From: Neisseria sp.
GTDB taxonomy: Bacteria; Pseudomonadota; Gammaproteobacteria; Burkholderiales; Neisseriaceae
Assembly (NCBI RefSeq): GCF_030530745.1
Contig: NZ_JAUMUI010000012.1
Coordinates: 1-64,000, forward strand
Length of the DNA stretch: 64,000 nucleotides
Reading direction: 5' to 3'
Shown: positions 36,419 to 62,102 of the stretch, piece after piece
Numbering within the stretch: position 1 is the first letter of the stretch
Layout of the letters: each line of letters starts with the position of its first letter
Notes under the pieces: model-generated
What the model saw: the letters and a program-made list of their open reading frames with translations, nothing else
Told to the model about the DNA's origin: nothing
The model's database searches: none
Position numbers and translations under genes: made by a program

Positions 36419-37651
36419 TCAGCCGCGCCAGCGTTTGAACACCAGCGAAGTATTCACGCCGCCGAAGGCGAAGTTGTTGTTGACCACATAATCGGTGAGG
36501 ATTTCGCGCCCTTCGCCGCGTATATGGTCCACGCCGCCGCACAGCGGGTCGATATTGTCGAGGTTGAGGGTGGGGGCGAACCAGCCGCTGTTCATCATTT
36601 CGATGGAAAACCACGATTCCAGCGCGCCGCAGGCACCGAGGGTGTGGCCGAAGTAGCTTTTCTGCGAGCTCATGGGCACACGGCCGAACAAGGCGGCGGT
36701 GGCTTGGGTTTCGGCGATGTCGCCTTTTTCGGTGGCCGTGCCGTGGCCGTTGACATAACCCACTTGTTCGGGGCAGATGCCTGCGTCGCGCAAGGCCAGT
36801 TCCATGCAGCGCTGCATGGTGGCTTTCTGCGGCTGGGTAACGTGGCTGCCGTCGCTGTTGGCGCCGTAGCCCACGATTTCGGCATAAATTTTCGCGCCGC
36901 GCGCTTGGGCGTGTTCGAGCGATTCGAGCACGAAAATGCCTGCGCCCTCTCCAATCACCAAACCGTCGCGGCCGCTGTCGTAGGGGCGCGGGGTTAATTC
37001 AGGTTCGGCGTTGCGGCGGCTGGCGGCATAAAGGCTGTCGAACACATACACTTGCGAAGCGCAAAATTCTTCGCCGCCGCCTGCGAGCATGGTGTCGGTC
37101 ATGCCGTATTTGATGGCTTCGTAGGCATAGCCGACGGCTTGGCTGCCTGAAGAACACGCGCTCGATGTGGGGATAATGCGGCCGGTCAGCTCGAAAAAAA
37201 TGCCGATATTGGCGGCGGTGGTGTGCGGCATCATGCGCACATAAGTGTTGGCGTTGAAATTGCGCGAGCTGCCGGTAAGCAGCAATTCACCGATGTCGCC
37301 GATGTCTTTGGGGCTGCCCGACGACGAGCCGCAGGCCACGCCCATGCGACCATCTTTGATGCGCTCGTCGCCAAGTAAACCGGCATCGTGCAGCGCCTGC
37401 TCGGCCGCATCGACACACAGCTGCGACACGCGCCCCATGCTGCGTAACTGTTTGCGTGTCCAATGTTTGGGCGGTTCGTAATGCGCAATCGGCGCGCCCA
37501 GTTGCGCTTCCAATTCGGGGAAGCGTTCCGACCAATCAATATGCTGTACGGCATTTTTACCGGCGGCAAAGGCCGCTTGAATGCTTGCCCAATCACGGCC
37601 AAAGGCGGTGATGCCGCCGATGCCTGTAACCACCACTCTGCGTGTATTCAT
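36419..37651 (-). CDS. Beta-ketoacyl-ACP synthase, FabF-like (ApeR-like), APE locus
   Basis: 410-residue condensing enzyme with the Cys-His-His triad in SSACSSGSQAV near residue 166, NGHGTATEKGD near 305 and YFGHTLGACGA near 341. FabF-like enzymes elongate acyl-ACP with malonyl-ACP; in APE loci such a gene follows the ketoreductase, as here. The ATG at 37651 overlaps the reductase stop by one base (TGATG), so the genes are coupled. It is the last of three leftward genes and ends at a bidirectional terminator. The letter assignment rests on gene order only. Confidence 0.9.
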   Translation of the reverse strand: MNTRRVVVTGIGGITAFGRDWASIQAAFAAGKNAVQHIDWSERFPELEAQLGAPIAHYEPPKHWTRKQLRSMGRVSQLCVDAAEQALHDAGLLGDERIKDGRMGVACGSSSGSPKDIGDIGELLLTGSSRNFNANTYVRMMPHTTAANIGIFFELTGRIIPTSSACSSGSQAVGYAYEAIKYGMTDTMLAGGGEEFCASQVYVFDSLYAASRRNAEPELTPRPYDSGRDGLVIGEGAGIFVLESLEHAQARGAKIYAEIVGYGANSDGSHVTQPQKATMQRCMELALRDAGICPEQVGYVNGHGTATEKGDIAETQATAALFGRVPMSSQKSYFGHTLGACGALESWFSIEMMNSGWFAPTLNLDNIDPLCGGVDHIRGEGREILTDYVVNNNFAFGGVNTSLVFKRWRG

Positions 37652-38379
37652 CAGCACAAACCTCCGTTAACCGCAATCACCTGCCGCGTAATGTAGGCGG
37701 CTTTTTCGTCCATCAGAAACCGTACTGCGTGTGCCACTTCTTCGGGCGTGCCCATGCGGGCGGCGGGGGTGGCTTTTAAAATTTCTTCTACCGGCACGTT
37801 GTCATCCACAATCTCGGTATCAATTAGGCCGGGCGCCACGCAGTTGACGGTGATTTTGCGTTTGGCAAGCTCCACAGCCAGCGCTTTGGCCGCGCCGATA
37901 ACGCCGGCTTTCGAGGCACTGTAGTTCACTTGGCCGCGGTTGCCGTTGAGACCGGAAACGGAGGCCATGCACACGATTCGGCCGGCTTTGCGGCGGCGTA
38001 TCATCGGCATCACCAACGGGTGCAGCACGTTGTAGAAGCCGTCGAGATTAGTGCGCAGCACGGTGTCCCAATCGTCGTCTTCAAAGGCGGGAAAGGCGTT
38101 GTCGCGGGTGAGGCCGGCGTTGAGCACCACGCCGTAATAGGTGCCGTGTTGTTCGATGTCGGCACTGAGCGCTTCGCGGCAGGCGGCGCGGTCGGCAATG
38201 TCGAACTGCAATACGCGCGCTTGACGGCCCTGTGCGCGGACGGCTTCAGCCACGGCTTCGGCTTCGCTGCGGCGGCTGCGGCAGTGCACCACGATGTCGT
38301 AGCCGTCGGCCGCCAGCGCCAGCGCGACGGCTTTGCCTATGCCGCGGTTGGAGCCGGTAATCAGAATGGTTTCGTTCAT
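37651..38379 (-). CDS. 3-oxoacyl-ACP reductase (ApeQ-like), APE locus
   Basis: Short-chain dehydrogenase/reductase of 242 residues that reduces beta-keto groups during polyene chain growth. NAD(P)-binding ITGSNRGIGKAVALAL is near residue 7, and the catalytic Ser/Tyr/Lys set includes YSASKAGVIGAAKALAVEL near residue 152. AAAGGAAAA precedes the ATG. It lies between the dehydratase and the ketosynthase, an order shared with other APE loci. Confidence 0.92.
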   Translation of the reverse strand: MNETILITGSNRGIGKAVALALAADGYDIVVHCRSRRSEAEAVAEAVRAQGRQARVLQFDIADRAACREALSADIEQHGTYYGVVLNAGLTRDNAFPAFEDDDWDTVLRTNLDGFYNVLHPLVMPMIRRRKAGRIVCMASVSGLNGNRGQVNYSASKAGVIGAAKALAVELAKRKITVNCVAPGLIDTEIVDDNVPVEEILKATPAARMGTPEEVAHAVRFLMDEKAAYITRQVIAVNGGLC

Positions 38380-38400
38380 GCGTTTTCCTTTGGTTTTGTT

Positions 38401-38439
38401 GAGGCCGTCTGAAAAAATATAAACGTTTCAGACGGCCTG
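38401..38439. terminator. Inverted DUS pair overlapping the dehydratase stop codon
   Basis: gaggccgtctgaaa and tttcagacggcctga flank a 12-nt loop. The rightmost arm provides the last codons and the TGA of the dehydratase (38428-38430). As a terminator on the minus strand it would weaken expression of the downstream reductase and ketosynthase. Confidence 0.5.
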
Positions 38440-38919
38440 ATTGTTTTGATGCGGGCTGTAAACGTTTAGCGACGCCTGCACCAGCAGGCCGTCGGCCGGC
38501 AGCGTGTGCTTTTCGTGTTCGGGCGCGTCGGTCCAGTAGAGCGCGCAGTCGAACACGCCGAAGCCGGCGGCATCCATCACCGACTCCTGCACTTTGACCA
38601 GCAGCTCGGTATGCACGGGAATGCTGTCGGCAAACAGGTTCAGTTTGCGCGTACCCAGCAGAAAGCCCAGCCGTATCGGTTGGCCGGTGTTGTGTGCGTG
38701 GCAGCCGGCAAGCGCGCCTATGCCCTGCGCCATGATTTCCATGCCCGAAAAGCAGGGCAGGCGGTTGTTTTGCAACAGGATATGGTCTGCCCCCACCGTG
38801 GCGGTGGCGGTGAGGTGGCTCTCGCCGTAGTCGGTGATGCAGTCGAGCAGCACCATGCGGCCGCTGTGCGGCAGCAGCGGGGCAACGGCGGTAATGGGGC
38901 AGGTGAGGGGAGTGTTCAT
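38428..38919 (-). CDS. 3-hydroxyacyl-ACP dehydratase, hotdog fold (ApeP-like), APE locus
   Basis: A 163-residue hotdog-fold protein. The N-terminal segment LLPHSGRMVLLD and the central CFSGMEIMAQGIGALAG helix are typical of ApeP-type dehydratases, which pair with ApeI to remove water and form the conjugated double bonds. In this locus the ApeI domain is at the end of the fused ligase (42698-44416). The C-terminal QAV and TGA codon come from a DUS. First gene of the leftward unit. Confidence 0.85.
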   Translation of the reverse strand: MNTPLTCPITAVAPLLPHSGRMVLLDCITDYGESHLTATATVGADHILLQNNRLPCFSGMEIMAQGIGALAGCHAHNTGQPIRLGFLLGTRKLNLFADSIPVHTELLVKVQESVMDAAGFGVFDCALYWTDAPEHEKHTLPADGLLVQASLNVYSPHQNNQAV

Positions 38920-39011: not shown

Positions 39012-39788
39012 ATGAGCAGATTTCATTTGCCGGAAATAGTGATGGATTCCACCGAACACTGCCGTTTTTCTTTCGATATTGCCGCATGGCAGGCTTCGTC
39101 GGATCGTGTGGCGGGCTTGGACGCCTGGAGGCAATGGGCGGCAGACGCTGCTTTTTCAGACGGCCTGCCCGATTATAAACCCGGGCTGGCTTTTTTGCCT
39201 GCCATGCAGCGCCGGCGTTTGGGCAAAGCCGCCCGCCTGATGTGCGACGCGGCATGGAATCTGGCCGAACAATATCCCGCCGCCCCACTGGTGTTTGCCT
39301 CGCACGACGGCGAGTTGAACCGCAGTTTCGAGCTGTGGTTGGAACTGATGAAAACCCAATCCGTATCGCCTACTTCGTTCGGCCTGTCGGTGCACAACGC
39401 CCAGGCAGGGCAGTGGTCTGTGCTGCGCAAGGATATGGCCGAAAGCACCGCGCTGGCGGTGGGCTGCGACGGCTTGGAAACCGCGCTGGCCGAAGCTTAT
39501 GCCCTGCTGCAAGAAGGCGCGGAGCATGTTTTAGTGGTGGTGGCCGACGACCCGTTGCTCGAGAAATACGCCGTAGCGTCAGACCGCGCGCCCATGCCTT
39601 ATGCGCTGGCCATGGTGGTGAAGCCCGGCCGGCAATACACGCTGTCGCTTTTTTCCGATAATGCGCCAGAAACCGGCGGCGAACCGTATTGGGGCGCATT
39701 AGACTGGATACGTTTTATGCTTTCAAACAGCCGTGAAGAAACCAGACGTTTCGGAACACGCCGCTGGTTGTGGCAGAAAACCTTATGA
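39012..39788 (+). CDS. Beta-ketoacyl synthase chain-length factor (ApeC-like), APE locus
   Basis: 258 residues, about half the size of a ketosynthase, in the family called chain-length factors of aryl polyene loci. The segment FVFASHDGELNRSF-like (seen as VFASHDGELNRSFELW) and SVHNAQAGQW fit. The catalytic Cys position is replaced (STALAVGCDGLETAL), so it is expected to be inactive and to pair with a true ketosynthase. Start may be 39012 or 39042; both have a weak leader. It overlaps the next gene by 4 bp. Confidence 0.85.
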   Translation: MSRFHLPEIVMDSTEHCRFSFDIAAWQASSDRVAGLDAWRQWAADAAFSDGLPDYKPGLAFLPAMQRRRLGKAARLMCDAAWNLAEQYPAAPLVFASHDGELNRSFELWLELMKTQSVSPTSFGLSVHNAQAGQWSVLRKDMAESTALAVGCDGLETALAEAYALLQEGAEHVLVVVADDPLLEKYAVASDRAPMPYALAMVVKPGRQYTLSLFSDNAPETGGEPYWGALDWIRFMLSNSREETRRFGTRRWLWQKTL

Positions 39789-40543
39789 AAACATTGGATT
39801 ATTACCGCCGTTTTTTCGCCACGCTGTTCGGGTTTGTGTTGTTCGGCGTGTTCGGCGTGCTGTTCAAAATCGTGCTGCTGCCCTACACCCTGAAAAGCAC
39901 CCGCAACGATACTGCCCGCCAGATGAAGGCGCGGCGGCTGATCGGCGGCGTATGGAGGCGGTTTGTCGGATATCTGGTGTGGTCGCGCGTGTTGAGCGTG
40001 AACTTCAACGGCTTGGAAAAACTCGGCAGGCCGGGCCAACTGGTGCTGGCCAACCACCCCTCGCTGCTCGATGTGGTGCTGCTGGTCGGCCATGTGCCCG
40101 AAATCAACTGCATCGTGAAAAAAGATTTGCTGGGCAACCCCTCGATGAAAAGCCAGATTCTCGCCTCCGGTTACATTCCCAACGACGAATCGCTGGAAAT
40201 GATGGAAGAGGTGGATGCCGTTTTCAAAAGCGGGCAGAGCCTGCTGATTTTTCCAGAGGGCTCGCGCACGGGCTGGGACGGGCAGATTAAGCTGCACCGC
40301 GGCGCCGTATCCATCGGGTTGCGCAGCGCCGCCGTCATTACGCCTGTGGTCATTAAAATGAACCCGCCGAATTTTAAAAAAGGCCAGCCGTGGTATAAAA
40401 TCCCACCCCGTACCATTCATTACGAAATTACCGTCGGCAGCGACATCAACCCGCAGGACTGGCTGGCCGAAAAGCCGCTGCCCATCGCCGCACGGCGGTT
40501 GAACGCTTATTTGCAAGACTATTTCACGCGAGAAACGACATGA
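39785..40543 (+). CDS. Lysophospholipid acyltransferase family protein (ApeD-like)
   Basis: 252-residue PlsC-type acyltransferase with an N-terminal membrane helix. The catalytic motif ANHPSLLDVV (a variant of HX4D) is near residue 96, and FPEGSRTGWDG is near 160. In APE loci it may attach acyl groups to the lipid anchor. ATGA overlaps join it to the genes on both sides (39785 and 40540). Confidence 0.88.
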   Translation: MKTLDYYRRFFATLFGFVLFGVFGVLFKIVLLPYTLKSTRNDTARQMKARRLIGGVWRRFVGYLVWSRVLSVNFNGLEKLGRPGQLVLANHPSLLDVVLLVGHVPEINCIVKKDLLGNPSMKSQILASGYIPNDESLEMMEEVDAVFKSGQSLLIFPEGSRTGWDGQIKLHRGAVSIGLRSAAVITPVVIKMNPPNFKKGQPWYKIPPRTIHYEITVGSDINPQDWLAEKPLPIAARRLNAYLQDYFTRETT

Positions 40544-41060: not shown

Positions 41061-41226
41061 CGGCAATACCGGCGGCCGTTTGAACCCGCCCGCTTTCAGA
41101 CGGCCTGATTTTTACAGCCAACCGGCTTAAGAAAAATTACATACCTTATACTCGGGCTTGGCCTGAGTATGACGAAACGGGTACTAAATACAAGTAGTTT
41201 AACGATACATTATGAGGCCGTCTGAA
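41061..41226. repeat. Intergenic region with a diverged cgggcttgaccc-family arm
   Basis: Contains one DUS (about 41097-41107) and a degenerate copy of the cgggcttgaccc family (tatactcgggcttggcctga at 41146-41165). It splits the rightward APE genes after the second carrier; the membrane-protein start at 41227 follows directly after a DUS. Confidence 0.55.
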
Positions 41227-41766
41227 ATGAAAGCCTTCGGTCGGATTTTTTTGGCGCTTGTCAGCATTTTCTACCCGTTGTTGTGGTATTACGGCCGCGA
41301 CAACGGTATCTTTTTATGGCTGGCCGCCGCCATGTGCGGCCTGTGGCTGGTGCGCGCCGTTTGGCAGAAAACCCGCGCCCAGCGCGCCGTGTCGCTGCTG
41401 TTGGCCGCTTTTTTCGCCGCCGTTATTATTTTCAGACGGCCTGATTCCATGTATTGGTATCCCGTGGCGGTTTCCCTGCTGATGCTTGCCGTGTTCGGTG
41501 CCAGCCTGTTTGCCGAGCAAACCCTGATCGAGCGCCTCGCCCGCCTGCAACATCCCGACCTGCCGCCCGAAGGCGTGCGCCACACCCGCCGCGTTACCCG
41601 AATCTGGTGCGGCTTTTTTATCTTCAACGCCGCCGCCGCCGCGCTGCTGGCATGGTCGGGCAGGCACGACTGGTGGGCGCTTTATACCGGCATCGTTTCG
41701 TATGTTTTGATGGGCGTGCTGTTTGCGGGAGAGTGGATTTACCGCAAAACCGTGCTGAAGGTTTGA
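41227..41766 (+). CDS. Integral membrane protein of the APE locus (COG4648-like, ApeG-like)
   Basis: 179 residues with about six hydrophobic segments and few charged loops. Proteins of this kind lie between the carriers and the AMP-ligase in APE loci; the role is unknown. The ATG at 41227 is chosen because an AGG lies upstream in the DUS; the alternative start at 41212 would translate the DUS itself. Confidence 0.75.
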   Translation: MKAFGRIFLALVSIFYPLLWYYGRDNGIFLWLAAAMCGLWLVRAVWQKTRAQRAVSLLLAAFFAAVIIFRRPDSMYWYPVAVSLLMLAVFGASLFAEQTLIERLARLQHPDLPPEGVRHTRRVTRIWCGFFIFNAAAAALLAWSGRHDWWALYTGIVSYVLMGVLFAGEWIYRKTVLKV

Positions 41767-41890
41767 GGCCGTCTGATAATAAAGGAGCCCGGGAAGTTTG
41801 AAAACTTCCTGACAAAACCGGTACGGGTGAGAATGGCTGTTGCCTGCAGGGCAGAACGGCTTTGCAGCCGCCCTACGCCCGGGCCGTACA

Positions 41891-42451: not shown

Positions 42452-42697
42452 AATTACCTCCCTAATAAAAATGAAATTTACAGTTTATAAAAATATATTT
42501 GTTAAATTAAAAAATCACTGTGTTTTAAATGTTGACATAAAATTTCAATATTCGGATATTATAATGACAAACGAAAAAACAGGCCGTTTTTTTGAAAAGC
42601 GGTTGTTAAGGCAAATTAAAGGTATTTTTCTGCGCGGAAACGGTTCGGTATTCGGAACTTTTTAAAGGCATTATTCCAATTTTTATAAAAAAATATA
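42452..42697. other. AT-rich intergenic region before the AMP-ligase gene
   Basis: A 246-bp AT-rich gap between the reversed membrane gene and the ligase/dehydratase gene. It probably contains a promoter for the downstream APE unit. A 64-codon open frame within it has no support. Confidence 0.4.
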
Positions 42698-44416
42698 ATG
42701 GTTATTCAAAAACTTACTAAAATTCTTTCGCCGTTTTTGCCTCAAGGCGATCTAACCGCCGCCAATCCCGCTTGGACGCGTGCCGATTTCAACCGTGCGG
42801 TGTTTTATATTTCAGGCCGTCTGAAAGCGCAGCGCGTGCAAACCGCCGCCTTGTGGTTTGAAGACGCCGCGCTGTTTGCTTGCGCGGTGCTGGCTGCGTG
42901 GCACGCGGGCGCGCGGGTGTTGCTGCCGCCGAATCTGGCGCGGGAAAACGCGGCTTGGGGCGGCACGGCGGATGTCTGGCTGACCGATGCGCCGCATGAA
43001 AAAGCGTTTTCAGACGGCCTCGAAAATCAAGTTTGGGACATCCGCACCTTGTTGGAAGCCGTGCCGCCCGAAACAGAAACCCCGGCCGATTGGCAGATTG
43101 CCGCAGATTCGGAAGCCTGTCTGAAAACATCCGGATCCAGCGGTGAAGCACAGATTATGGTGAAAACCGCCGCGCAGATGGAGGCCGAAGCGGCGGCGCT
43201 GGCCGAAGCCGTGCCGTTTGCGCGCGAAAACCCCGTTGTTATCGGCAGCGTCAGCCCGCAGCATATGTACGGTTTCACTTTCCGTTTCGCGCTGCCGCTC
43301 ACGATGGGCTGGACGCTCGACCGGCCGCAGAATGTGTATCCCGAAACCCTGCTGGCCGCGGCCGCCGCTTATGAAAAAACACTGTGGATCGCCAGCCCGG
43401 CGGTGCTGAACCGTTTGGGCGAAGCGCGCAACTGGCAGGCCTTGCAGGGCAGGGTGGCGGGCATCGTGTCGGCCGGCGGCGTGCTGCCCGAAGCCACTGC
43501 CGATTTATTGGAACAACACGCCGTGCGGCCTTTTGAAATCTACGGCAGCACCGAAACCGGCGTGATCGCCTCGCGCCGGTTTGGGCGGGAATGGCGGCCG
43601 TTTGCCGCCGTTGCCGTCGGCCAAAACAAAGACGGAGCCTTGTGGGCCGAATCGCCGTGGACGGCGGGCCGCTTCCAAACCGCCGATTTAATCGAGCCGC
43701 AGGCGGAGGGCTTTTTATTGCTCGGCCGCCGCGACCGCATCATCAAATTCGAAGACAAACGCGTGTCGCTCAACCAAATCGAACACGACCTGCTCGCCCA
43801 CGAATGGGTGGCCGACGCTTTCTGCGCCCCGCACCCGCAGCACAAGCGGGTGGCCGTGTGGGCGGCGCTGAATGCCGCAGGCATCGAAGCCTTGCGGGAG
43901 AAAGGCAGGGGGCAGGTGGCCGCTGCGCTGAAAACGCACTTGGCTGCCACGCAGGATACCGTCGCCTTGCCGCGCTACTGGCGGTTTGCCGCCGGGCTGC
44001 CGCGCAATGCGCAATCGAAAATCACCGCCGCCGATTTTCAGACGGCCTTCACGCAGGCGCAAACCGCGCCCGAATGGCGGGAATGCCTGTCTGAAACCCC
44101 CAGTGTTTACCGCTTTGAGGGCCGCGTGCCGCTGGACTTGGCGTATTTCGGCGGCCACTTCGCCAATTTTCCGCTGGTGCCCGGCGTAATCGAATTGCAG
44201 TGGGTGCGTGATTTGGCCGCGCGCTTCGACTGGGGCTGCCGCAGCATCGTGCGCGTGGAAAACCTGAAATACCAGCAGTTCGTGCGCCCGAACGACACCG
44301 TGTCTGCCGAGCTGAAATACGATGCCGAAAAAGGCAAATTAACGTTTAAGCTGGAAAACGGCGAAGCGGCATGCGCTTCGGGGCGGATTGTGTTTGGGGC
44401 GTTTGAGGCCGTCTGA
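42698..44416 (+). CDS. Fused aryl/acyl-ACP ligase and dehydratase (ApeH-ApeI-like)
   Basis: 572 residues. The first 445 or so form an AMP-binding adenylation domain: SGSSGEAQIMVK near residue 146, YGSTETGVIASRR near 283 and LLGRRDRIIKFEDKRVSLNQ near 347. It is expected to load the aromatic starter acid onto a carrier protein. The last 110 or so form a hotdog dehydratase domain with GGHFANFPLVPGVIELQW near 488, in the FabA/FabZ style. APE loci generally have both functions, sometimes fused. The stop codon is provided by a DUS (EAV, then TGA). Confidence 0.88.
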   Translation: MVIQKLTKILSPFLPQGDLTAANPAWTRADFNRAVFYISGRLKAQRVQTAALWFEDAALFACAVLAAWHAGARVLLPPNLARENAAWGGTADVWLTDAPHEKAFSDGLENQVWDIRTLLEAVPPETETPADWQIAADSEACLKTSGSSGEAQIMVKTAAQMEAEAAALAEAVPFARENPVVIGSVSPQHMYGFTFRFALPLTMGWTLDRPQNVYPETLLAAAAAYEKTLWIASPAVLNRLGEARNWQALQGRVAGIVSAGGVLPEATADLLEQHAVRPFEIYGSTETGVIASRRFGREWRPFAAVAVGQNKDGALWAESPWTAGRFQTADLIEPQAEGFLLLGRRDRIIKFEDKRVSLNQIEHDLLAHEWVADAFCAPHPQHKRVAVWAALNAAGIEALREKGRGQVAAALKTHLAATQDTVALPRYWRFAAGLPRNAQSKITAADFQTAFTQAQTAPEWRECLSETPSVYRFEGRVPLDLAYFGGHFANFPLVPGVIELQWVRDLAARFDWGCRSIVRVENLKYQQFVRPNDTVSAELKYDAEKGKLTFKLENGEAACASGRIVFGAFEAV

Positions 44417-47444: not shown

Positions 47445-47482
47445 GGATGCCGTCTGAAAAAATAGCTTTTCAGACGGCATGA
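47445..47482. terminator. Inverted AT-DUS pair after the LolA-like gene
   Basis: atgccgtctgaaaa and ttttcagacggcat are separated by aatagc. Unlike the other inverted pairs in the window, this one has the AT form of the 12-mer found mainly in meningococcus and gonococcus. Confidence 0.7.
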
Positions 47483-53982: not shown

Positions 53983-55013
53983 CTTATCTTTGCGGGCAGG
54001 CGGTTACGTGCGCGCTCAACCCGCAAAGCGGCTGCGCGCGGCAACAGCCCGAAACGCTTGGCTTCACCTTTCTGCATCAGGCGCAGCAGGCGAAATATTA
54101 CCGCGCCTTTGCCGAAACCAGCCTGAGCCGCGCCGCCGTTGCCGATCTGGCCGAAGCACATTTGCGCCGCGCCGCAGAGAGCGCCGGCTGGCCGTCTGAA
54201 AGCTGGTACCATGCGCCGGTGTTTATCGGCTCGAGTTCGTATTTGATGTCGGAGTGCGAAAACCTTTATTCCGACCAAAGCGCATCCGACCATAATCTGC
54301 TTTATCTTGCCCGCGATTTGCAGGCGCGCAGCGGCAACACCGATATTTTCAGCATCGCCACCGCCTGCACATCGTCGGCGCACGCCCTGATTCAGGCACA
54401 TAACCAACTCTCGGCGCCCGGCTCTCGGCGCGCGTTCGTGCTCGGCTTGGAAAGCCTCAACCGCCTCACCCTGCTGCATTTTCACAGCCTGGACCTGTTT
54501 GCCGAACACTACCGGCCCTTCGGCGGCAACGGCCTGATTTTGGGCGAAGGCATGGCCGCGCTGGCGTTGTGTGCCGACAAGCCCGCCGGTTCCAACCTGC
54601 GCCTGCGCTCCTGCGCCGCCAACACCGGCAGCGGCAGTTTGGTGCAGAGCGACGGCGGGGCGCAGGAAGCGCTGATCCGGCGGGTGTTGGCTGCCGCGCA
54701 AACCGATGCCGCCGCCGTGCGCGCCGTCAAAACCCACGGCATCGGCACCGCCGACAGCGACGCGGCCGAATGGCAAGCCCTGCATAATGTGTTCGGCACC
54801 CCGCCGCCCCTGTTGGCGTTCAAACCCCAAACCGGCCACACCCTCGGCGCCGCCGCCGCAATCGAAACCGCCTTGCTGGCCGAAGCCCTGCATAAGGGTG
54901 AAGGCGCAGACAGCAACGGGCGGCGCATTGGGTTTTCAGACGGCCTTTATTTAAGCAACCACTTCGGCTTCGGCGGCAGCAACACCGCCATGGTATGGCA
55001 ATGGACACGGTAA
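53979..55013 (+). CDS. Beta-ketoacyl synthase, DAR block
   Basis: A compact 344-residue ketosynthase with the Cys-His-His triad in IATACTSSAHAL near residue 131, VKTHGIGTADS near 251 and PQTGHTLGAAAA near 285. It is shorter than FabF (about 410). It overlaps the next KS-like gene by 19 bp, and the two probably form a heterodimer. Confidence 0.85.
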   Translation: MTYLCGQAVTCALNPQSGCARQQPETLGFTFLHQAQQAKYYRAFAETSLSRAAVADLAEAHLRRAAESAGWPSESWYHAPVFIGSSSYLMSECENLYSDQSASDHNLLYLARDLQARSGNTDIFSIATACTSSAHALIQAHNQLSAPGSRRAFVLGLESLNRLTLLHFHSLDLFAEHYRPFGGNGLILGEGMAALALCADKPAGSNLRLRSCAANTGSGSLVQSDGGAQEALIRRVLAAAQTDAAAVRAVKTHGIGTADSDAAEWQALHNVFGTPPPLLAFKPQTGHTLGAAAAIETALLAEALHKGEGADSNGRRIGFSDGLYLSNHFGFGGSNTAMVWQWTR

Positions 55014-55642
55014 CCCGCAATATAAACATCACCGCCGCCGCCCGTTTCGACAGCGATCCGTCGGTTAGCGGCAAAACGCTCAAACAAGCCTTGCAGCAGC
55101 AAACCGGCATCGATGGCCGCCGTTTCAGCCGCTTAAGCCTGCTCGCCGCGCTCGGTGCCTGCAACCTGCGCAGCCGTGCCGCCGTGTGCGAAGACTGTGC
55201 GGTTTATGTGGCTACGCCGTTTTCGTCGCCTTCGCTGTTTGAAAAAATGACCGATAACGTGCTCAACCACCATGCCGCCATGCCGTTCGATTTTATTGCC
55301 AACCTGCATAACGCTCCCGCTTTCCACGCCGCCCAGGCGCTCGGCAGCCGCGGCGCATCGCTGGTGCTGGCGGCAGATAACCGCCCCGAATCATGGACGC
55401 AGATTCTGCGACTTGCCGCCGCCAGCCTGCACGCGGAGCGCCGGATTGCCGTGGGCTGGTGTTACGAACAGCCCAAAGGGCAGGGCGGCTGGGAGGGCAG
55501 CATATGGGTTTTGTTGGAATATGCCCGCGGGCAGGGGCAACAAGGGTTTGCCGACCCGTTAAACATCACGCAAACCCCGGGCGCAAACAGCACATACTGG
55601 CAAGGCGTTGCCGATTGGCTGCAACGGCTTGAGGCCGTCTGA
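54995..55642 (+). CDS. Ketosynthase-like protein without catalytic Cys, DAR block
   Basis: 215 residues resembling the N-terminal half of a thiolase fold. The segment NAPAFHAAQAL occupies the position of the active-site Cys motif, so it should be catalytically inactive and act like a chain-length factor to its overlapping partner. Start may be 54995 or 55001. The end EAV-TGA comes from a DUS. Confidence 0.7.
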   Translation: MAMDTVTRNINITAAARFDSDPSVSGKTLKQALQQQTGIDGRRFSRLSLLAALGACNLRSRAAVCEDCAVYVATPFSSPSLFEKMTDNVLNHHAAMPFDFIANLHNAPAFHAAQALGSRGASLVLAADNRPESWTQILRLAAASLHAERRIAVGWCYEQPKGQGGWEGSIWVLLEYARGQGQQGFADPLNITQTPGANSTYWQGVADWLQRLEAV

Positions 55643-55658: not shown

Positions 55659-58004
55659 ATGCACCTTACCATACGCCGTATTTACACCGCATTGATGGTA
55701 TTACTGCTTGGTTTTGCGGTTTACAGCGTGGCCGCCACGCAATGGCTGCAAACCGACCTCGCCGCCCTGCTGCCGCAGGAAGAGCGGCCGGATGTGTTGT
55801 TGCAGGCGGCGGATAAGGCGGTGGAGGCGCAGTTGAATACGCAGGTGGTGTTGCTCGCGGGCAGCACCGATGCAGAAAAAGCGTTTCAGACGGCCTCGGA
55901 AATCGCCGCTTTATGGCGCAAAAGCCAAGTGTTTGCCGCGGTGGACAGCAGCGTTTCGCCCGATTTGGAAGCGGTGCGCGCCGACGTGCGGCGTTTGGGG
56001 CTGGCGGTGCTGCCGCCCGAGCAGCGGCGGCTGTTGTTTGAAGAGCCGAAACGTTATTTTCAGGAGCGCGCCGAAGCGGCGGTCAACCCGTTTGCCGCCC
56101 CTTCGCCTTTGCCGCTGGAGCAGGATTGGCTGGGTTTCGGCCGTTTCGTCACCGAACGCGCCCAACCGCAGAGCCGTTTGCAGTGGAACGCCGACAACGG
56201 CATGCTGTTCACCGAAGACGATAGCGGCAAAACTTGGGTGTGGTTGCGCGGCAAACTGCCCAAAGCCAACAACCTCGCCAACGGCAGCGATAATCTGTTG
56301 CCGCTGTTGCAGCAAAGCCGCGGGCTGGCCGCGAAAAACGGGGTGGAAACGTTAAGCGCGGGTGGGGCGGTGTTTGCCGCCGCCTCGAAAGCGGCAGCCG
56401 AGCGCGAAAGCCGGCTGATGGGTACGGCCGGTTTGCTGCTTACCTTTGCGCTGTTGTTGTGGGTGTTCCGCAGCGTGCGGGTGTTTTGGCTGGTGCTGCC
56501 GCTGGCGGCGGGTATGCTCGCCGGATTGGCGGCGGCTCTGCTGGTGTTCGGCGAAGTGCATATCCTCACCATCGTAATCGGCACCAGTTTGGTGGGGATG
56601 TTGGTGGATTTTCCGCTGCATTGGCTGGCGCCTTCGGTGTTCGGCACGGTGGCACACCGTTATGCGCGTTCAGACGGCCACGATTGGCAGGCCGAACCTG
56701 CCATGCGCCATGTGCTGCCCACGTTTGCCGTGAGCCTGCTGATAACGGTGGCGGGTTATGCGTTTCTGTGGTTCACGCCCTTGCCGGTGTTGCGGCAGAC
56801 GGCGGTGTTTTCCGGTTTTGCGCTGTTGGGCGCGTTCGGCGCCACCGTGTTGTGGCTGCCGCCGCTGTTTGCGCGCTACCAAGCTAAAAGCGTGCCGTTT
56901 ACCGGCCTGGTGGAACGGCTGTATGCCTTGTCGGCGCGCATGAAAATCCGCCTGCACCGCCGCGGCTGGTGGCTGGTGGGCGGCATACTGCTGGCGGTGG
57001 GGCTGTGGCGCAGCAATTGGCACGACGATATCCGCCAATGGGTGAACATGCCGCCGGCGATGCTGGCCGAAGCGCAGAAAATCGGCGGGCTTTCCGGCAC
57101 CGATTTCGGCAGCCGTTATCTGGTGGTGGAAGCCGGCAGCGAAGATGAATTGTTGCGGAAAAACGCCGAAGTCGGCCGTGCTTTGCAGCCGTTGGCGGCG
57201 CAGCAGAAACTGGCCGGCATCCAGTCGCTTGACCAATGGCTGCTGCCGGCGGCCGAGCAGCAGAAACTGCAAAACCGTCTGCGCGAATTGGCGAAGCTGC
57301 CGGAAAACTGGCAGCCGATGCGCGAAATCGGCGTGCCGCGGCAGACCGTGCGCAATGCTTTGAACCAGGCCGCCGCCGCGCCGCCGCTCACGCTTTCAGA
57401 CGGCCTCAAACCCGCGCTGGCCGAAGCCTGGCGGCCGCTTTACTTGGGTGAGGCCGCCCCCGGCCGTTTCGCCTCGATTATCCGCCTGAACGGCTTAAAC
57501 GACGCGGCGGCGGTTCAGGCGGGCATCAAAGGCTTGGCGGGCGTGCACTGGGCAGACAAGCGCAGCCATCTGAACGAATTGTTCCGCCACACCCGCAATC
57601 AGGCGGCTTGGCTGAAACTGGCTTCTTATGCCTTGGCCCTGCTACTGTTGTGGCGAATGTTCGGCATCAGGCGCGGTATCACGGTGCTGGCGGTGCCGCT
57701 GGCCGCCGCCGTGGGCACGGTGGCGGTGCTGGGCTGGGCGGGCATTCCCGTCAGCCTGTTCGCCATGTTCGGCCTGCTGCTGGTTTCCGCCATCGGCGTC
57801 GATTACGCCGTGTATGCCGTTGCCGCCAAACACAGCGCCCCCGCCCGTTTGGGCGGCATGCTGCTGGCGGCGCTCACCACCGGTATTTCGTTTGTATTGC
57901 TGGGCATGAGCAGCACGCCCGCCGTGGCGGCGTTCGGCATCACCGTGGCGGTGGGCACGGTGTTGAACCTGTGGCTGGCGGGTTGGCTGTTGGAGGAGAA
58001 ATAA
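55659..58004 (+). CDS. MMPL/RND-type exporter, APE locus
   Basis: 781 residues with two sets of about six helices and two large periplasmic loops, the RND/MMPL plan. Loop 1 follows the first helix (MHLTIRRIYTALMVLLLGFA), and the C-terminal half includes FGLLLVSAIGVDYAVYAVAA, typical for the fourth helix region. Such proteins are expected to flip or export APE lipids. The AGGAGGAAG leader before 55659 is very strong. Confidence 0.9.
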   Translation: MHLTIRRIYTALMVLLLGFAVYSVAATQWLQTDLAALLPQEERPDVLLQAADKAVEAQLNTQVVLLAGSTDAEKAFQTASEIAALWRKSQVFAAVDSSVSPDLEAVRADVRRLGLAVLPPEQRRLLFEEPKRYFQERAEAAVNPFAAPSPLPLEQDWLGFGRFVTERAQPQSRLQWNADNGMLFTEDDSGKTWVWLRGKLPKANNLANGSDNLLPLLQQSRGLAAKNGVETLSAGGAVFAAASKAAAERESRLMGTAGLLLTFALLLWVFRSVRVFWLVLPLAAGMLAGLAAALLVFGEVHILTIVIGTSLVGMLVDFPLHWLAPSVFGTVAHRYARSDGHDWQAEPAMRHVLPTFAVSLLITVAGYAFLWFTPLPVLRQTAVFSGFALLGAFGATVLWLPPLFARYQAKSVPFTGLVERLYALSARMKIRLHRRGWWLVGGILLAVGLWRSNWHDDIRQWVNMPPAMLAEAQKIGGLSGTDFGSRYLVVEAGSEDELLRKNAEVGRALQPLAAQQKLAGIQSLDQWLLPAAEQQKLQNRLRELAKLPENWQPMREIGVPRQTVRNALNQAAAAPPLTLSDGLKPALAEAWRPLYLGEAAPGRFASIIRLNGLNDAAAVQAGIKGLAGVHWADKRSHLNELFRHTRNQAAWLKLASYALALLLLWRMFGIRRGITVLAVPLAAAVGTVAVLGWAGIPVSLFAMFGLLLVSAIGVDYAVYAVAAKHSAPARLGGMLLAALTTGISFVLLGMSSTPAVAAFGITVAVGTVLNLWLAGWLLEEK

Positions 58005-58920: not shown

Positions 58921-60165
58921 ATGTCATTATCTCATCAATTCGATATCGCCGTGATCGGCGCAGGCCCTTCCGGCTCGGTGGCGGCGGCCTTACTCAACAA
59001 AAAAGGCTTCAAGGTGTGCGTGCTCGAGAAGCAGCATTTTCCGCGCTTCGTGATTGGCGAGAGCCTGTTGCCGCACTGTATGGAAATGCTTGAAGAAGCG
59101 GGTTTTTTAGAAGCGGTAGAAGCCGAGCCTTCGTTTCAGTTTAAAAACGGTGCGGCATTCACCTGGGGCAGCCGCTACACTTATTTCGATTTCACCGATA
59201 AGTTTTCAGACGGCCCGGGCACTACGTTTCAGGTACGCCGCGCGTTGTTTGACAAAATTTTGATTGACGAAGCGGCCAAACAGGGTGTGGAAGTGCGTTT
59301 CGGCCACGGCGTAACCGCGTTTGACGACAGCGGCGAGGAGGCGGTGTTGAGCGTGGAAACCGACGGCGGCGAAACCTACCGCCTCAACGCCCGTTTCGTG
59401 CTCGATGCCAGCGGCTACGGCCGCGTGCTGCCTCGCTTGTTGGACTTGGAAACCCCTTCCGACCTGCCGCCGCGCACCGCCCACTTCACCCACATCGAAG
59501 ACAACATCACCAATCCGAAATTCGACCGCAACAAAATCCTGATCACCACCCACCCGCAGCACCGCGACGTGTGGCTGTGGACGATTCCGTTCGGCGACAA
59601 CCGCTGCTCCATCGGCGTGGTCGGCACGCCCGACAAACTGGCCGGCGATTCGGAAACCGTGCTGAAAAAATTCGCGCTCGAATGCCCGATGCTGGCTGAA
59701 GTGCTGGAAAACGCGGTGTGGGAAAACGAATTTCCGTTCCGCAGCATACAAGGCTATTCGGCCAATGTGAAATCTTTATACGGCAAGCGTTTCGCGCTCT
59801 TGGGCAACGCTTCCGAGTTTCTTGATCCGGTGTTTTCGTCGGGCGTAACCATCGCCATGCACTCGGCCAAACTGGCGGCCGACCTGCTGGCCAAACAGCT
59901 GAACGGCGGCGGAGCCGACTGGCAGCGCGAGTTTGCCGAACCGCTGATGCAGGGCGTGGATACGTTCCGCACTTATGTAACGGGCTGGTATGATACCCGC
60001 TTCCAAGACGCCATTTACGCGCCCGACCGCAGCGCCGACATCAGCCGCATGATTTCGTCGATTCTGGCGGGCTATGCGTGGGATACGGCCAACCCGTTCG
60101 TGGAAAAACACGCCCGCCGCTTAGACGCGCTTGCCGCGATGGTGGGCAGGCAGGCGCTGGTTTGA
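58921..60165 (+). CDS. Flavin-dependent halogenase-like oxidoreductase, APE locus
   Basis: 414 residues. The FAD-binding GAGPSGSVAAALLNKKGF is at residue 12, followed by PRFVIGESLLPHC, which is common to halogenases. The WxWxIP motif characteristic of flavin-dependent halogenases is present as VWLWTIPFGDN near residue 220. It may chlorinate or brominate the aryl ring, as in xanthomonadins, or act as a related monooxygenase. Whether a catalytic Lys equivalent exists is uncertain; FKNGAAF near residue 75 has a candidate. Confidence 0.8.
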   Translation: MSLSHQFDIAVIGAGPSGSVAAALLNKKGFKVCVLEKQHFPRFVIGESLLPHCMEMLEEAGFLEAVEAEPSFQFKNGAAFTWGSRYTYFDFTDKFSDGPGTTFQVRRALFDKILIDEAAKQGVEVRFGHGVTAFDDSGEEAVLSVETDGGETYRLNARFVLDASGYGRVLPRLLDLETPSDLPPRTAHFTHIEDNITNPKFDRNKILITTHPQHRDVWLWTIPFGDNRCSIGVVGTPDKLAGDSETVLKKFALECPMLAEVLENAVWENEFPFRSIQGYSANVKSLYGKRFALLGNASEFLDPVFSSGVTIAMHSAKLAADLLAKQLNGGGADWQREFAEPLMQGVDTFRTYVTGWYDTRFQDAIYAPDRSADISRMISSILAGYAWDTANPFVEKHARRLDALAAMVGRQALV

Positions 60166-60230
60166 TGCGTTTTGTTTAACCGGCCTGCGGCCTGAAAACC
60201 GTTTCAGGCCGTCTGAAAGAGGAGTTGTAT

Positions 60231-60812
60231 ATGAACAAACACCTGATTGCCTTAACCGCCGCATTCGTGCTCGCCGCGTGCAGCAGCGGCGTGCCCAAAC
60301 CGCAAACGCTGCCGCAGTTTCAAAGCGGCGGCGGCTGGTTCCAGCTCGAGCAGCGCGATGCCGCAGGCAATGTTGTTCAAAGCAGCCTGCTGGCGGTAGA
60401 GCAGGGGGCAGACGGCGTGCGCTTCGTGCAAACCGATCCGCTGGGCGCGCCGCTGTCGCGGCAGGTGTTAAGCAAAAAAGGCTGGCGCAACGACGGCTTC
60501 GTGATGCCCAACGCCTCCGCCCGCCGCCTGTTTGCCGCCATGCTGCCGCTGTTTGCCGCCGACGGTGCTGCGGTTTACCCGGGCTTGCAGCGCAGTCGTG
60601 CCGAAAACGGCGAATGTTTCAGCCAAAAGGGCCGCACATTGTGGTGTAGCGCACAAACCGGCAACCGCTGGCTGGTAACGTTCCCCGACCAAACGAAATG
60701 GTCGGTGGTGCCGATTCGGGACGATAGTGAATCCAATTACTTCGGTACAAGGCAGCAAGCCGAAGACAGTACAGATAGTACGGCAAGGCGCAGCAACGCC
60801 GTAACGGAGTAA
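60231..60812 (+). CDS. DUF3261-like lipoprotein, APE locus, with Correia-encoded C-terminus
   Basis: 193 residues with signal peptide and lipobox VLAACS (Cys near residue 17). DUF3261-type proteins occur in APE loci and may act at the outer membrane with LolA-like and MMPL components. The ATG at 60231 has a GAGGAG leader. From about 60724 the frame enters a Correia-type repeat, so the last 29 or so residues (starting DSESNYFGTRQQ) are encoded by the repeat rather than by the ancestral gene. Confidence 0.8.
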   Translation: MNKHLIALTAAFVLAACSSGVPKPQTLPQFQSGGGWFQLEQRDAAGNVVQSSLLAVEQGADGVRFVQTDPLGAPLSRQVLSKKGWRNDGFVMPNASARRLFAAMLPLFAADGAAVYPGLQRSRAENGECFSQKGRTLWCSAQTGNRWLVTFPDQTKWSVVPIRDDSESNYFGTRQQAEDSTDSTARRSNAVTE

Positions 60813-60826
60813 GTGGATTCACTATA
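60724..60826. repeat. Complete Correia-type repeat element
   Basis: 103 bp with perfect 12-bp inverted ends atagtgaatcca / tggattcactat and an internal core acagtacagatagtacggc followed by aaggcgcagcaacgccgta, which matches the Correia core as I recall it. It overlaps the end of the DUF3261 gene and ends 71 bp before the ketosynthase start. Confidence 0.85.
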
Positions 60827-60896
60827 ACCCGCCGTTTGTATGGCGGCTGTTATGCGCCGCACCGTGCCGGACGATTATCTGAACAATCAAATATAT

Positions 60897-62102
60897 ATGA
60901 ATACACCCGTTTATCTCTCACCTCCTGCCGTTACCAGCGCATTGGGCGACGGCTTGGCCGCGCATATCGACGCCCTGTTGAACCCCGCCGCCGGTTCGCC
61001 GTTAACGTTTTCCGACCGGTGGGTCAACGGCAAAACCTACGCTTTCGGAGCAGTTAAACACGGGCTGCGGCCGTTTCCGCAAGATTTGCCCGCCTTGTTT
61101 TGCAGCCGCAACAACCAGTTGCTTTGGCACGCGCTGGCGCAAATCGAACCGCAAATCGAGGCAGCCAAAGCACGTTTCGGTGCGGGGCGGGTAGCCGTTG
61201 TGTTGGGCACTTCAACCAGCGGCGTAGATGAAAACATCGAAATGTTCCGGCAGGTGTCGCAGGGTGCGGCGTGGCAGGAAGTAACGTTCAAGCAGGCGCA
61301 GCAACGAATGGATGCGCCTGCGGAATTCGTGGCCGAAGTGTACGGCCTGAAAAACCTGAATTATGTGGTTTCCACAGCCTGCACATCGGGGGTGCGTGCC
61401 CTGATCAGCGCCGCCCGCCTGCTGCGCGCGGGTTTGTGCGATGCCGTGGTGTGCGGCGGGGCGGATACGCTGTCACCGTTAACCATCAACGGCTTCGCTT
61501 CGCTGGAAGTGCTCTCGGACGGGCTGGCCAATCCGTTTTCGGCCAACCGCGACGGTATCAATATCGGCGAAGCCGCCGCCGTATTCGTGATGACGCGCGA
61601 AGCAGGTTTTTCTAACGGCCTGCCGCTGCTCGGTTACGGCGCCAGCAGCGATGCCTATCATATGTCGTCGCCCCGTCCCGACGGTTTGGGCGCGGTGCAG
61701 GCGTTTCAGACGGCCTTAACCCATGCCGGCGTGCGTGCGGCCGACATCGGTTGGATCAACCTGCACGGCACCGGCACGCAGCATAACGACAGCATGGAAA
61801 GCATCGCCGTGAACGAAGTGTTCGGCAGCACCACGCCTTGCACCTCCACCAAACCGCTTACCGGCCACACCCTAGGCGCCGCCGGCGCGATTGAGGCCGC
61901 CTTTCTCTGGGGCATGGTCAGCCGCGAATACAACCCAGAGGGCAGGCTGCCGCCGCAATTGTGGGACGGCACGGCCGACGAAGCCCTGCCGCGCATCGGC
62001 TTAACCGGCCGCGAAAGCCGCTGGCCGCACGGCCGCCGCATAGGCGCCAGCTCGTCGTTTGCTTTCGGCGGCAGCAATGCAGTGCTGGTTATCGGCGAAT
62101 AA
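60897..62102 (+). CDS. Beta-ketoacyl-ACP synthase (ApeO-like), APE locus
   Basis: 401 residues with the Cys-His-His triad in VSTACTSGVRAL near residue 161, NLHGTGTQHND near 290 and PLTGHTLGAAGA near 323. In APE loci this synthase follows the DUF3261 gene and should pair with the chain-length factor (39012-39788). The ATG at 60897 (MNTPVYLSPPAV) is chosen; an upstream ATG at 60840 would give 19 extra residues, mostly of sequence next to the Correia repeat. A palindromic DUS terminator follows. Confidence 0.88.
   Translation: MNTPVYLSPPAVTSALGDGLAAHIDALLNPAAGSPLTFSDRWVNGKTYAFGAVKHGLRPFPQDLPALFCSRNNQLLWHALAQIEPQIEAAKARFGAGRVAVVLGTSTSGVDENIEMFRQVSQGAAWQEVTFKQAQQRMDAPAEFVAEVYGLKNLNYVVSTACTSGVRALISAARLLRAGLCDAVVCGGADTLSPLTINGFASLEVLSDGLANPFSANRDGINIGEAAAVFVMTREAGFSNGLPLLGYGASSDAYHMSSPRPDGLGAVQAFQTALTHAGVRAADIGWINLHGTGTQHNDSMESIAVNEVFGSTTPCTSTKPLTGHTLGAAGAIEAAFLWGMVSREYNPEGRLPPQLWDGTADEALPRIGLTGRESRWPHGRRIGASSSFAFGGSNAVLVIGE

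What the first reader, a model, noticed from the sequence alone, without database searches (positions are those of the whole stretch)
36419..62102. Hybrid aryl-polyene plus dialkylresorcinol pigment locus in a Neisseria
The locus joins nearly complete APE machinery (ketosynthases, chain-length factor, reductase, two dehydratase domains, ligase, carriers, acyltransferases, LolA-like carrier, MMPL exporter, DUF3261 lipoprotein) with DarA, DarB, a BtrH-type protein and an ABC exporter. That combination is the hallmark of flexirubin loci, known to me mainly from Bacteroidetes, in which an aryl polyene acid is esterified to a dialkylresorcinol. Many commensal neisseriae are yellow, so the locus offers a testable chemical basis. 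Whether it has been described for this genus I cannot say from the sequence.
Basis: partly seen in the sequence, partly recalled or inferred. Interest (0 to 1): 0.85.

Follow-up and report, generated by a model that had tools for sequence, protein, structure and literature searches.

The report
Two-part pigment gene cluster in Neisseria
A Neisseria carries, in one stretch of DNA, the genes for a yellow aryl-polyene chain and for the resorcinol tail that a plant-dwelling relative is thought to join to such a chain; the kind of pigment is known, but its chemistry in Neisseria appears untested.

Summary
Window 36419-62102 carries an aryl-polyene (APE) locus with a dialkylresorcinol (DAR) cassette (47707-55642) between its LolA-like and exporter genes. 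DarB, DarG and DarH pass curated NCBIfam cut-offs; ApeP, an ApeI-like domain, an ApeC-like chain-length factor and the ACPs pass Pfam's. DarA is a flavodoxin-fold protein without a curated model; its name rests on fold, conservation and gene order. The cassette follows the gene order of the Azoarcus sp. BH72 DAR cluster (less two TA-like genes), whose pigment arcuflavin is proposed, from mass spectra, to be an APE-DAR ester. The closest known system is thus betaproteobacterial arcuflavin, not Bacteroidetes flexirubin; no ammonia lyase, flexirubin's starter enzyme, was found in the genome. In 47 genomes of the genus, DarB and DarH occur in the same 25; the APE ligase is in 24 of these and in 13 of the other 22. 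The LolA-exporter junction is empty in 7 of 25 APE stretches fetched. DarK, called hypothetical in Azoarcus, has a truncated ketosynthase fold like the chain-length factor ApeC. Resorcinol and aryl-polyene clusters had been predicted in Neisseria before. A new member of a known kind; the chemistry is an untested prediction.

The parts
36419..37657 (-). ApeO-type ketosynthase (Ape letter recalled), SAC / HG / GHT motifs of the Cys-His-His triad present
   Evidence: NF006587 700 bits; PDB 4ewg, 7f27; motifs
37651..38379 (-). ApeQ-type ketoreductase (SDR)
   Evidence: PF00106, E 1.5e-51
38428..38919 (-). ApeP-like dehydratase
   Evidence: PF22817, E 9.7e-12
39012..39788 (+). ApeC-like chain-length factor, none of the Cys-His-His motifs found
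   Evidence: PF13723, E 1.1e-67; best PDB match 6qsp_B, titled ApeC; motifs
39770..40543 (+). PlsC-type acyltransferase
   Evidence: PF01553
40540..40797 (+). acyl carrier protein 1
   Evidence: PF00550
40794..41060 (+). acyl carrier protein 2 (an ATG lies at 40809)
   Evidence: PF00550; starts
41212..41766 (+). membrane protein of the APE locus, function unknown
   Evidence: weak PF04279 below cut-off; matched in many of the fetched APE stretches of the genus
42698..44416 (+). aryl-acid/ACP ligase fused to an ApeI-like dehydratase domain (ApeH-ApeI fusion)
   Evidence: PF00501 + PF22818; PDB 3esi and 6qsr at residues 475-564 and 480-553; such a fusion is described in a passage of PMC8041823
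44580..45326 (+). glycosyltransferase family 2
   Evidence: PF00535
45373..46257 (+). LpxL-type acyltransferase
   Evidence: PF03279
46250..46687 (+). 4HBT-type thioesterase (ATG at 46250)
   Evidence: PF13279; start codon
46783..47376 (+). LolA-like carrier (ATG at 46783)
   Evidence: PF19574, PF03548
47707..48630 (+). DarA: flavodoxin-fold protein with a C-terminal helical region; proposed resorcinol aromatase
   Evidence: alignment A4, 43 sequences, 54% mean column identity; model pLDDT 94.1; Foldseek WrbA/flavodoxin; gene order
48827..49996 (+). DarB ketosynthase/cyclase, Cys, His and Asn motifs present
   Evidence: NF005293 566 bits; PDB StlD 5gk0, E 3.6e-124; motifs
49999..50412 (+). DarG family protein (by place, darD of Azoarcus), ATG at 49999
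   Evidence: NF053536 169.9 bits
50484..51479 (+). DarH, BtrH-related acyltransferase; proposed ester-forming enzyme
   Evidence: NF053550 479 bits; PF14399 + PF16169; same 25 of 47 genomes as DarB
51484..52374 (+). ABC exporter ATPase (by place, darF of Azoarcus)
   Evidence: PF00005
52371..53624 (+). ABC-2 permease (by place, darI), ATG overlaps the ATPase stop
   Evidence: PF12698; start codon
53692..53982 (+). acyl carrier protein 3 (by place, darC)
   Evidence: PF00550
53979..55013 (+). ketosynthase (by place, darJ), TAC / HG / GHT motifs present; N-terminal profile matched only from position 96
   Evidence: PF02801 + PF00109; motifs
54995..55642 (+). DarK (name by place): ApeC/CLF-like truncated ketosynthase fold, proposed partner of the darJ ketosynthase
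   Evidence: profile comparison with ApeC, probability 95.3%, E 2.4e-8; model pLDDT 84.8; Foldseek 6kxf_B and 6qsp_B
55659..58004 (+). large exporter-like membrane protein (RND/HpnN-like, weak), ATG at 55659
   Evidence: TIGR03480, E 5e-7, below cut-off; no relevant Pfam match
58921..60165 (+). halogenase-type FAD oxidoreductase with WLWTIP
   Evidence: PF04820; PDB 3nix ('flavoprotein/dehydrogenase') E 2e-112, then halogenases 3e1t and 3i3l; motif; NCBIfam CmlS model far below cut-off (142 of 900)
60225..60812 (+). small putative lipoprotein
   Evidence: lipobox-like signal below cut-off only
60840..62102 (+). ApeR-type ketosynthase (Ape letter recalled), TAC / HG / GHT motifs present
   Evidence: NF006618 442.9 bits, cut-off 407; motifs
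47449..47478 (.). pair of inverted DNA-uptake sequences between LolA and DarA; a possible terminator by position only
   Evidence: sequence; not in the terminator scan's list
62122..62159 (+). terminator-like DNA-uptake-sequence hairpin closing the locus
   Evidence: 17-pair stem, the longest of the scan; the scan as a whole is not above shuffles (35 found, 32.1 expected)

Best explanation
An arcuflavin-type hybrid pigment locus. Inferred route: UbiC gives 4-hydroxybenzoate; the ligase loads it on an ACP; ApeO/ApeC, ApeQ and ApeP/ApeI extend and dehydrate it to an aryl polyene. The DAR cassette separately makes a dialkylresorcinol: the darJ ketosynthase with DarK (proposed KS/CLF pair) and ACP3 supply a beta-ketoacyl chain, DarB condenses it with a second acyl thioester and cyclises, DarA aromatises. 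DarH then moves the aryl polyene from its ACP to a phenolic hydroxyl of the resorcinol. The ABC transporter, LolA-like carrier and exporter take the product to the outer membrane. Shown here: the genes, motifs, predicted folds, gene order and co-occurrence. Inferred: every catalytic step, the ester and the location.
For: Profiles; DarB's best PDB match is StlD; the cassette order equals the Azoarcus DAR cluster darA-B-D-E-F-I-C-J-K less its two TA-like genes (PMC3949708 Table 1; darD and darK correspond by place only), whose pigment was proposed from MS and labelling to be an APE-DAR ester. In 47 genomes of the genus DarB (68% identity or more) and DarH are in the same 25; the ligase is in 24 of these 25 (the exception is 68% complete) and in 13 of 22 others (one-sided Fisher p 0.0025). 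LolA lies 124-539 bp upstream of DarA in 14 of 25. DarB distances track ligase distances (Mantel r 0.80, 0 of 2000 permutations, 21 genomes). Outside the first Neisseria block, 48 of 50 DarA-bearing genomes hold PF13723 (ApeC) over cut-off, against 39 of 185 in a class sample that includes the window's own.
Against: No chemistry. DarB stays below the stricter DAR model NF053539 (459 bits, cut-off 550) and DarG below flexirubin_DarG (113, cut-off 170). DarA has no curated model. Of the 24 genomes with both DarB and ligase, only 10 have them within 20 kb; in 6 they lie 0.1-1.4 Mb apart and in 8 on different contigs (places, counted). Co-occurrence is not independent of descent. N. leonii, with both clusters predicted, is described with translucent colonies. 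One oral survey names its site-enriched resorcinol clusters from Capnocytophaga, Porphyromonas and Prevotella, not from Neisseria (PMC8549736 passage). The published flexirubin proposal gives the joining step to a ligase-like FlxW, not to DarH (PMC3992019 passage). A chorismatase (XanB2 type) was not found, but the control did not ring, so the starter is inferred.
Confidence: 0.75

Rival explanations
1. Two separate products: the APE genes make an aryl-polyene lipid (via the glycosyltransferase and the two acyltransferases), and the DAR cassette makes and exports free or otherwise decorated dialkylresorcinol through its own ABC transporter. The two sit together but are not joined.
For: Lipid-type APE genes are kept here; 13 of 22 DarB-lacking genomes carry the ligase alone; the cassette brings its own exporter; in 14 of 24 genomes with both, DarB and ligase are not shown to be near each other.
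Against: Only 1 of 25 DarB-positive genomes lacks the ligase, and that one is 68% complete; glycosyltransferase, acyltransferase, LolA and exporter genes are also kept in arcuflavin-type and flexirubin clusters (PMC3949708); DarK overlaps or nearly abuts the exporter gene; DarH is found in just the DarB-positive genomes.
Confidence: 0.17
2. A true flexirubin (coumarate-started, Bacteroidetes type).
For: Same overall modules: aryl polyene, DarA, DarB, LolA, exporter.
Against: No aromatic ammonia lyase PF00221 in the genome, with five of 14 controls ringing; UbiC present; DarG below the flexirubin_DarG cut-off; gene order as in Azoarcus.
Confidence: 0.05
3. The locus is decayed or silent.
For: Related genomes show rearranged or partly dispersed copies; a repeat element sits upstream of darA.
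Against: The listed genes are uninterrupted frames, and the KS and DarB active-site motifs are present; the nine cassette proteins have matches of 93-100% identity in the three closest genomes G022, G036, G016.
Confidence: 0.03

Closest known systems
Arcuflavin clusters of Azoarcus sp. BH72 (arc and dar; PMC3949708)
   Same: Betaproteobacterial; same DAR gene order darA-B-D-E-F-I-C-J-K (darD and darK matched by place only); APE ketosynthases, reductase, dehydratases, ligase, ACP, LolA, exporter and halogenase-like genes; product proposed to be an APE-DAR ester.
   Different: There the polyene set is split in two loci apart from the DAR set; it has a XanB2-type chorismatase for 3-hydroxybenzoate, a methyltransferase and a TA-like gene pair inside the DAR set. 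Here one locus, no chorismatase or methyltransferase among the matches of the proteins scanned, a UbiC elsewhere. Azoarcus sequences themselves were not aligned here; the comparison uses the paper's Table 1.
Flexirubin clusters of Chitinophaga / Flavobacterium
   Same: DarA and DarB within or near a large aryl-polyene cluster with LolA, acyltransferase and exporter genes (PMC3992019 passages).
   Different: Flexirubin starts from p-coumarate by a tyrosine ammonia lyase; none found here.
APE clusters of E. coli, Xenorhabdus, Acinetobacter baumannii
   Same: ApeC/ApeO pair, ApeQ, ApeP, ApeI; an ApeH-ApeI fusion is described in PMC8041823 (passage).
   Different: No DAR cassette (recalled).
Pasteurellaceae loci (L112, L115, L120, L121 and others)
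   Same: DarA-DarB beside APE genes; DarB groups with that of one Neisseria, G029.
   Different: There the DAR genes follow the ApeR-P-Q-O end rather than the LolA-exporter junction.

Membership tests
APE-DAR hybrid locus (arcuflavin type) | DarB/StlD-family ketosynthase | tested here: met
   NF005293 566 bits over 450; StlD 5gk0 E 3.6e-124. The stricter NF053539 is not reached (459 of 550).
APE-DAR hybrid locus (arcuflavin type) | DarA aromatase beside DarB | tested here: inconclusive
   Flavodoxin fold with C-terminal helices, conserved; 76 of 80 named DarA loci also hold a DarB match in the stretch; no curated DarA model and no comparison with a tested DarA.
APE-DAR hybrid locus (arcuflavin type) | APE elongation set (KS, CLF, KR, DH, ligase, ACPs) | tested here: met
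APE-DAR hybrid locus (arcuflavin type) | DarG and DarH accessory proteins | tested here: met
   NF053536 and NF053550 over cut-off
APE-DAR hybrid locus (arcuflavin type) | Gene order of the Azoarcus DAR cluster | tested here: met
   Window order against Table 1 of PMC3949708, apart from the TA-like pair darG/darH of that paper; darD and darK correspond by place only
APE-DAR hybrid locus (arcuflavin type) | XanB2-type chorismatase for 3-hydroxybenzoate | tested here: inconclusive
   PF21168 no match, but no control rang
APE-DAR hybrid locus (arcuflavin type) | Polyene acid esterified to a resorcinol | not testable with these tools
   Needs MS of extracts
Flexirubin locus (Bacteroidetes type) | Tyrosine ammonia lyase starter enzyme | tested here: not met
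   PF00221 absent from the genome, 5 of 14 controls ring
Flexirubin locus (Bacteroidetes type) | Flexirubin-type DarG (NF053545) | tested here: not met
   113 bits against a cut-off of 170

The most novel reading that the evidence does not exclude
The DAR cassette is an exchangeable tail module with its own second KS/CLF unit (darJ ketosynthase with DarK), moved in or out at one junction of the APE locus, so that closely related neisseriae put the same aryl polyene either on a resorcinol (by DarH) or on a lipid. If the halogenase-type FAD enzyme 58921-60165 is active, the Neisseria pigment could also be a halogenated arcuflavin, a compound I know of no report of.
Probability: 0.3. Interest if true: 0.6.

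Novelty: new member of a known kind. Interest (0 to 1): 0.4.

Why it matters
It gives a concrete chemical hypothesis for pigment in commensal neisseriae and a natural comparison: within one genus, 13 of 47 genomes carry the APE ligase without DarB and 24 carry both, so the effect of the resorcinol tail on colour, membrane location and oxidative protection could be compared between near relatives. The CLF-like reading of DarK, called hypothetical in the Azoarcus table, suggests how DAR clusters might set alkyl chain length. The kind of system itself is already known.

Tried and rejected
Flexirubin as the product was dropped for lack of an ammonia lyase. A search for the chorismatase PF21168 gave nothing, but no control rang, so it is not used. 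PADLOC was asked only about the Abi_2 gene. ApeO (KS_O) distances were compared with ligase distances (r 0.017, 830 of 2000) and with DarB (r 0.378, 9 of 2000); I think they are poor because in stretches without ApeO the best match is another ketosynthase, but I did not test that, and these two rows are not used either way. Other rows: DarB-ABC ATPase r 0.60 (1 of 2000), DarA-ligase 0.75, DarH-ligase 0.76, DarB-LpxL acyltransferase 0.76, DarB-DarA 0.94. The DarB tree (44 rows that I chose, not all loci) does not make Neisseria a single group: Pasteurellaceae fall among them, G029 with the Pasteurellaceae; 12 of 40 inner branches are open, so the direction of transfer is not claimed. Whether the cassette was gained or lost at the LolA-exporter junction is undecided: of 25 APE stretches fetched (L180-L204), 7 show the junction empty (in G067 from a partial exporter match at the stretch's end), 1 (G068) shows DAR genes in it, and in 17 the two genes were not both seen. 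Promoter and terminator scans gave 14 promoter-like sites (7.5 expected) and 35 terminator-like (32.1 expected) and carry no argument here.

Papers: PMC3949708 abstract and sections 3, 17 (part 1 of 2), 22, 23 and 24 read; its Table S7 was not available. PMC11316581, PMC6469967, PMC8549736, PMC10104596, PMC3992019, PMC8041823: passages only. Other papers: search listings only. Searches for Neisseria with dialkylresorcinol, aryl polyene + flexirubin, aryl polyene, yellow pigment + carotenoid, resorcinol + arylpolyene, xanthomonadin listed no paper whose title or abstract start reports an APE-DAR pigment from Neisseria; most listed papers were not opened, and most subscription papers are not in the library.
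Full report
What is there. The window is part of contig C1 of a 2.28-Mb, 53-contig genome. The DNA-uptake sequence GCCGTCTGAA (its meaning is recalled) occurs 89 times in the window against 0.07 expected, and the nearest named DarA in the scan is that of Neisseria dentiae (95%; records very near the window's genome may be left out there), so a Neisseria is well supported. From 36419 to 62102 lie three genes on the minus strand (ketosynthase, ketoreductase, ApeP-like dehydratase) and then a long plus-strand run: ApeC-like CLF, PlsC acyltransferase, two ACPs, membrane protein, ligase fused to an ApeI-like domain, glycosyltransferase, LpxL-type acyltransferase, thioesterase, LolA; then the DAR cassette DarA, DarB, DarG, DarH, ABC ATPase, ABC permease, ACP, a ketosynthase (darJ by place) and DarK; then the exporter-like protein, an Abi_2 gene, a halogenase-type FAD enzyme, a small putative lipoprotein and the last ketosynthase. 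The Cys, His and His motifs of the three ketosynthases (ApeO, darJ, ApeR) and the Cys, His and Asn motifs of DarB are present, and none was found in ApeC. In darJ and ApeR the N-terminal ketosynthase profile is matched only from positions 96 and 115 of 252. The triad rule and the Ape letters of the ketosynthases and reductase are recalled.

Naming. DarB passes NF005293 (566 bits, cut-off 450) and its best solved relative is StlD (E 3.6e-124), but it does not reach the stricter model NF053539 (459 of 550). DarG passes the family model and fails the flexirubin one; DarH passes NF053550. DarA matches no curated model above cut-off. Its model (pLDDT 94) matches WrbA and other flavodoxin-fold proteins, with three long C-terminal helices; some receptor structures in that list align only loosely (rmsd 18-30) and are set aside. 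It carries invariant residues S14, Q15, G17, Q18, L19 in 43 sequences. Its name therefore rests on fold, conservation and place.

DarK. The last cassette protein has no Pfam match even at E up to 10. A profile of 29 relatives aligns with the ApeC profile (probability 95.3%, E 2.4e-8); the best solved sequences are 7f28 (E 0.00025), 9s5h (0.0023) and 6qsp_B (0.013); the model (pLDDT 84.8) matches first the ishigamide KS/CLF chain 6kxf_B and the Xenorhabdus ApeO-ApeC chain 6qsp_B. TM-scores are moderate (0.59 and 0.58 by query length), and general ketosynthases follow closely, so this shows a truncated ketosynthase fold and makes a CLF role beside the darJ ketosynthase likely, not certain.

Closest known system. 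In Azoarcus sp. BH72 the DAR cluster reads darA, darB, darD, darE (BtrH-like), darF (ABC ATPase), two TA-like genes, darI (ABC permease), darC (ACP), darJ (ketosynthase), darK (hypothetical) (PMC3949708 Table 1). The window has the same order without the TA-like pair; darD and darK are matched by place only, as the Azoarcus sequences were not at hand. That strain's pigment arcuflavin was proposed from MS and labelling to be a polyene-DAR ester; NMR was not possible. The paper already says such combinations are widespread: 16 of 39 listed genomes with DAR genes, nine with them within or next to the polyene genes. So the module combination is not new, nor confined to Bacteroidetes.

Starter. No aromatic ammonia lyase was found in the genome while five of 14 controls rang; a UbiC-family chorismate lyase is present (33.2 bits over cut-off 23.6); the XanB2-type search is uninformative. 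4-hydroxybenzoate is therefore the likely starter, by inference.

Distribution in the genus (47 genomes). DarB at 68% identity or better is in 25 (the weaker matches in that call, 35% identity or less, look FabH-like and are left out); DarH is in the same 25; the ligase is in 37, namely 24 of the 25 and 13 of the other 22 (Fisher one-sided p 0.0025, not corrected for descent). The exception, G019, is 68% complete. Of the 24 with both, DarB and ligase lie within 20 kb in 10, 0.1-1.4 Mb apart in 6 and on different contigs in 8. LolA lies 124-539 bp upstream of DarA in 14 of the 25. In 7 of the 25 APE stretches fetched, LolA and exporter genes adjoin directly (-70 to +368 bp): G001, G002, G003, G004, G006, G063, G067; G002 carries its DAR genes on another contig, and the other six have no DarB. 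In G009, G012, G027, G035 and G064 the DAR stretch fetched held darA, darB and darG but not darH; darH lies elsewhere on the same contig. DarB distances follow ligase distances (Mantel r 0.80, 0 of 2000; 21 genomes) and ketoreductase distances (r 0.87, 0 of 2000; 16 genomes).

Beyond the genus. The DarA scan of named genomes confirmed 221 loci and kept the best 80; 76 of the 80 stretches also hold a DarB match and 69 a DarH match. Of 50 loci taken in rank order after the first Neisseria block (L111-L160), 48 genomes hold the ApeC family PF13723 over cut-off; in a class sample it is in 39 of 185, the window's own genome included. The DAR set is not random, some matches in it are weak (five at E 5.8e-15 to 6.6e-14), at least one genome seems to be in both samples, and kinship is not corrected, so this is an association only.

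Mechanism. The most likely product is an aryl polyene esterified to a 2,5-dialkylresorcinol. DarH as the joining enzyme is inferred from its BtrH-like acyltransferase family and from its co-occurrence with DarB; the flexirubin authors proposed a ligase-like FlxW instead. The FAD enzyme carries WLWTIP and resembles halogenases, but its best solved match is titled flavoprotein/dehydrogenase and the NCBIfam halogenase model is not reached; that this motif marks halogenases is recalled, and arcuflavin is reported as non-brominated although its cluster has a halogenase-like gene, so halogenation is only possible.

What was in print. Resorcinol and aryl-polyene clusters predicted in Neisseria leonii; Neisseria resorcinol and aryl-polyene clusters in oral microbiome data; aryl polyenes in Neisseria, with no Neisseria compound in the databases those authors consulted, and site-enriched resorcinol clusters named there only from Capnocytophaga, Porphyromonas and Prevotella. 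N. leonii colonies are described as translucent, which speaks against a simple rule that both clusters give yellow colonies. I found no report of the joined product in Neisseria in the searches named under Tried and rejected.

Verdict. A sound observation, correctly read in outline; a new member of a known kind, with its closest described kin in a betaproteobacterium. What is added here: the cassette boundary, the genus-wide pattern, the pairing of DarB and DarH, and the CLF-like reading of DarK.

Noticed in passing
58235-58906 (+): An Abi_2-family gene (PF07751; PADLOC PD-T4-5 E 6.4e-19, AbiD E 3.2e-6) sits between the exporter and the FAD enzyme in a low-GC dip; it is matched in N. dentiae L100 and in G036 and not in the fetched stretches of G022 and G016. 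Possibly a phage-defence cargo gene.
   Followed up: partly
47515-47685: A repeat element of about 165 bp with inverted ends between LolA and DarA; 55 matches in the whole genome (opposite-strand matches of the same places included), 12 of them nearly full length, this copy counted; the LolA-DarA gap is 162 bp shorter in G036.
   Followed up: partly
60724-60825: Inverted repeat with 25-bp arms resembling a Correia-type element (the likeness is recalled) overlapping the end of the lipoprotein gene.
   Followed up: no
41767-42697: A gap of about 0.9 kb between the membrane protein and the ligase that is shorter in G022 and G036; of its frames one minus-strand frame was scanned and gave only DUF2214 below cut-off, and one plus-strand frame gave nothing.
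   Followed up: no
G001:C1:2342841-2343089: Two short extra matches to the ligase N-terminus (33 residues each) just upstream of the full ligase gene.
   Followed up: no
L111 (Mannheimia haemolytica DSM 10531 record): DarA and DarB beside ApeR-P-Q-O genes, but no PF13723 match in that genome.
   Followed up: no
L122 (Pasteurellaceae MAG): DarA directly followed by APE genes (LpxL-type acyltransferase, thioesterase, LolA, exporter, FAD enzyme) with no DarB match in the stretch.
   Followed up: no
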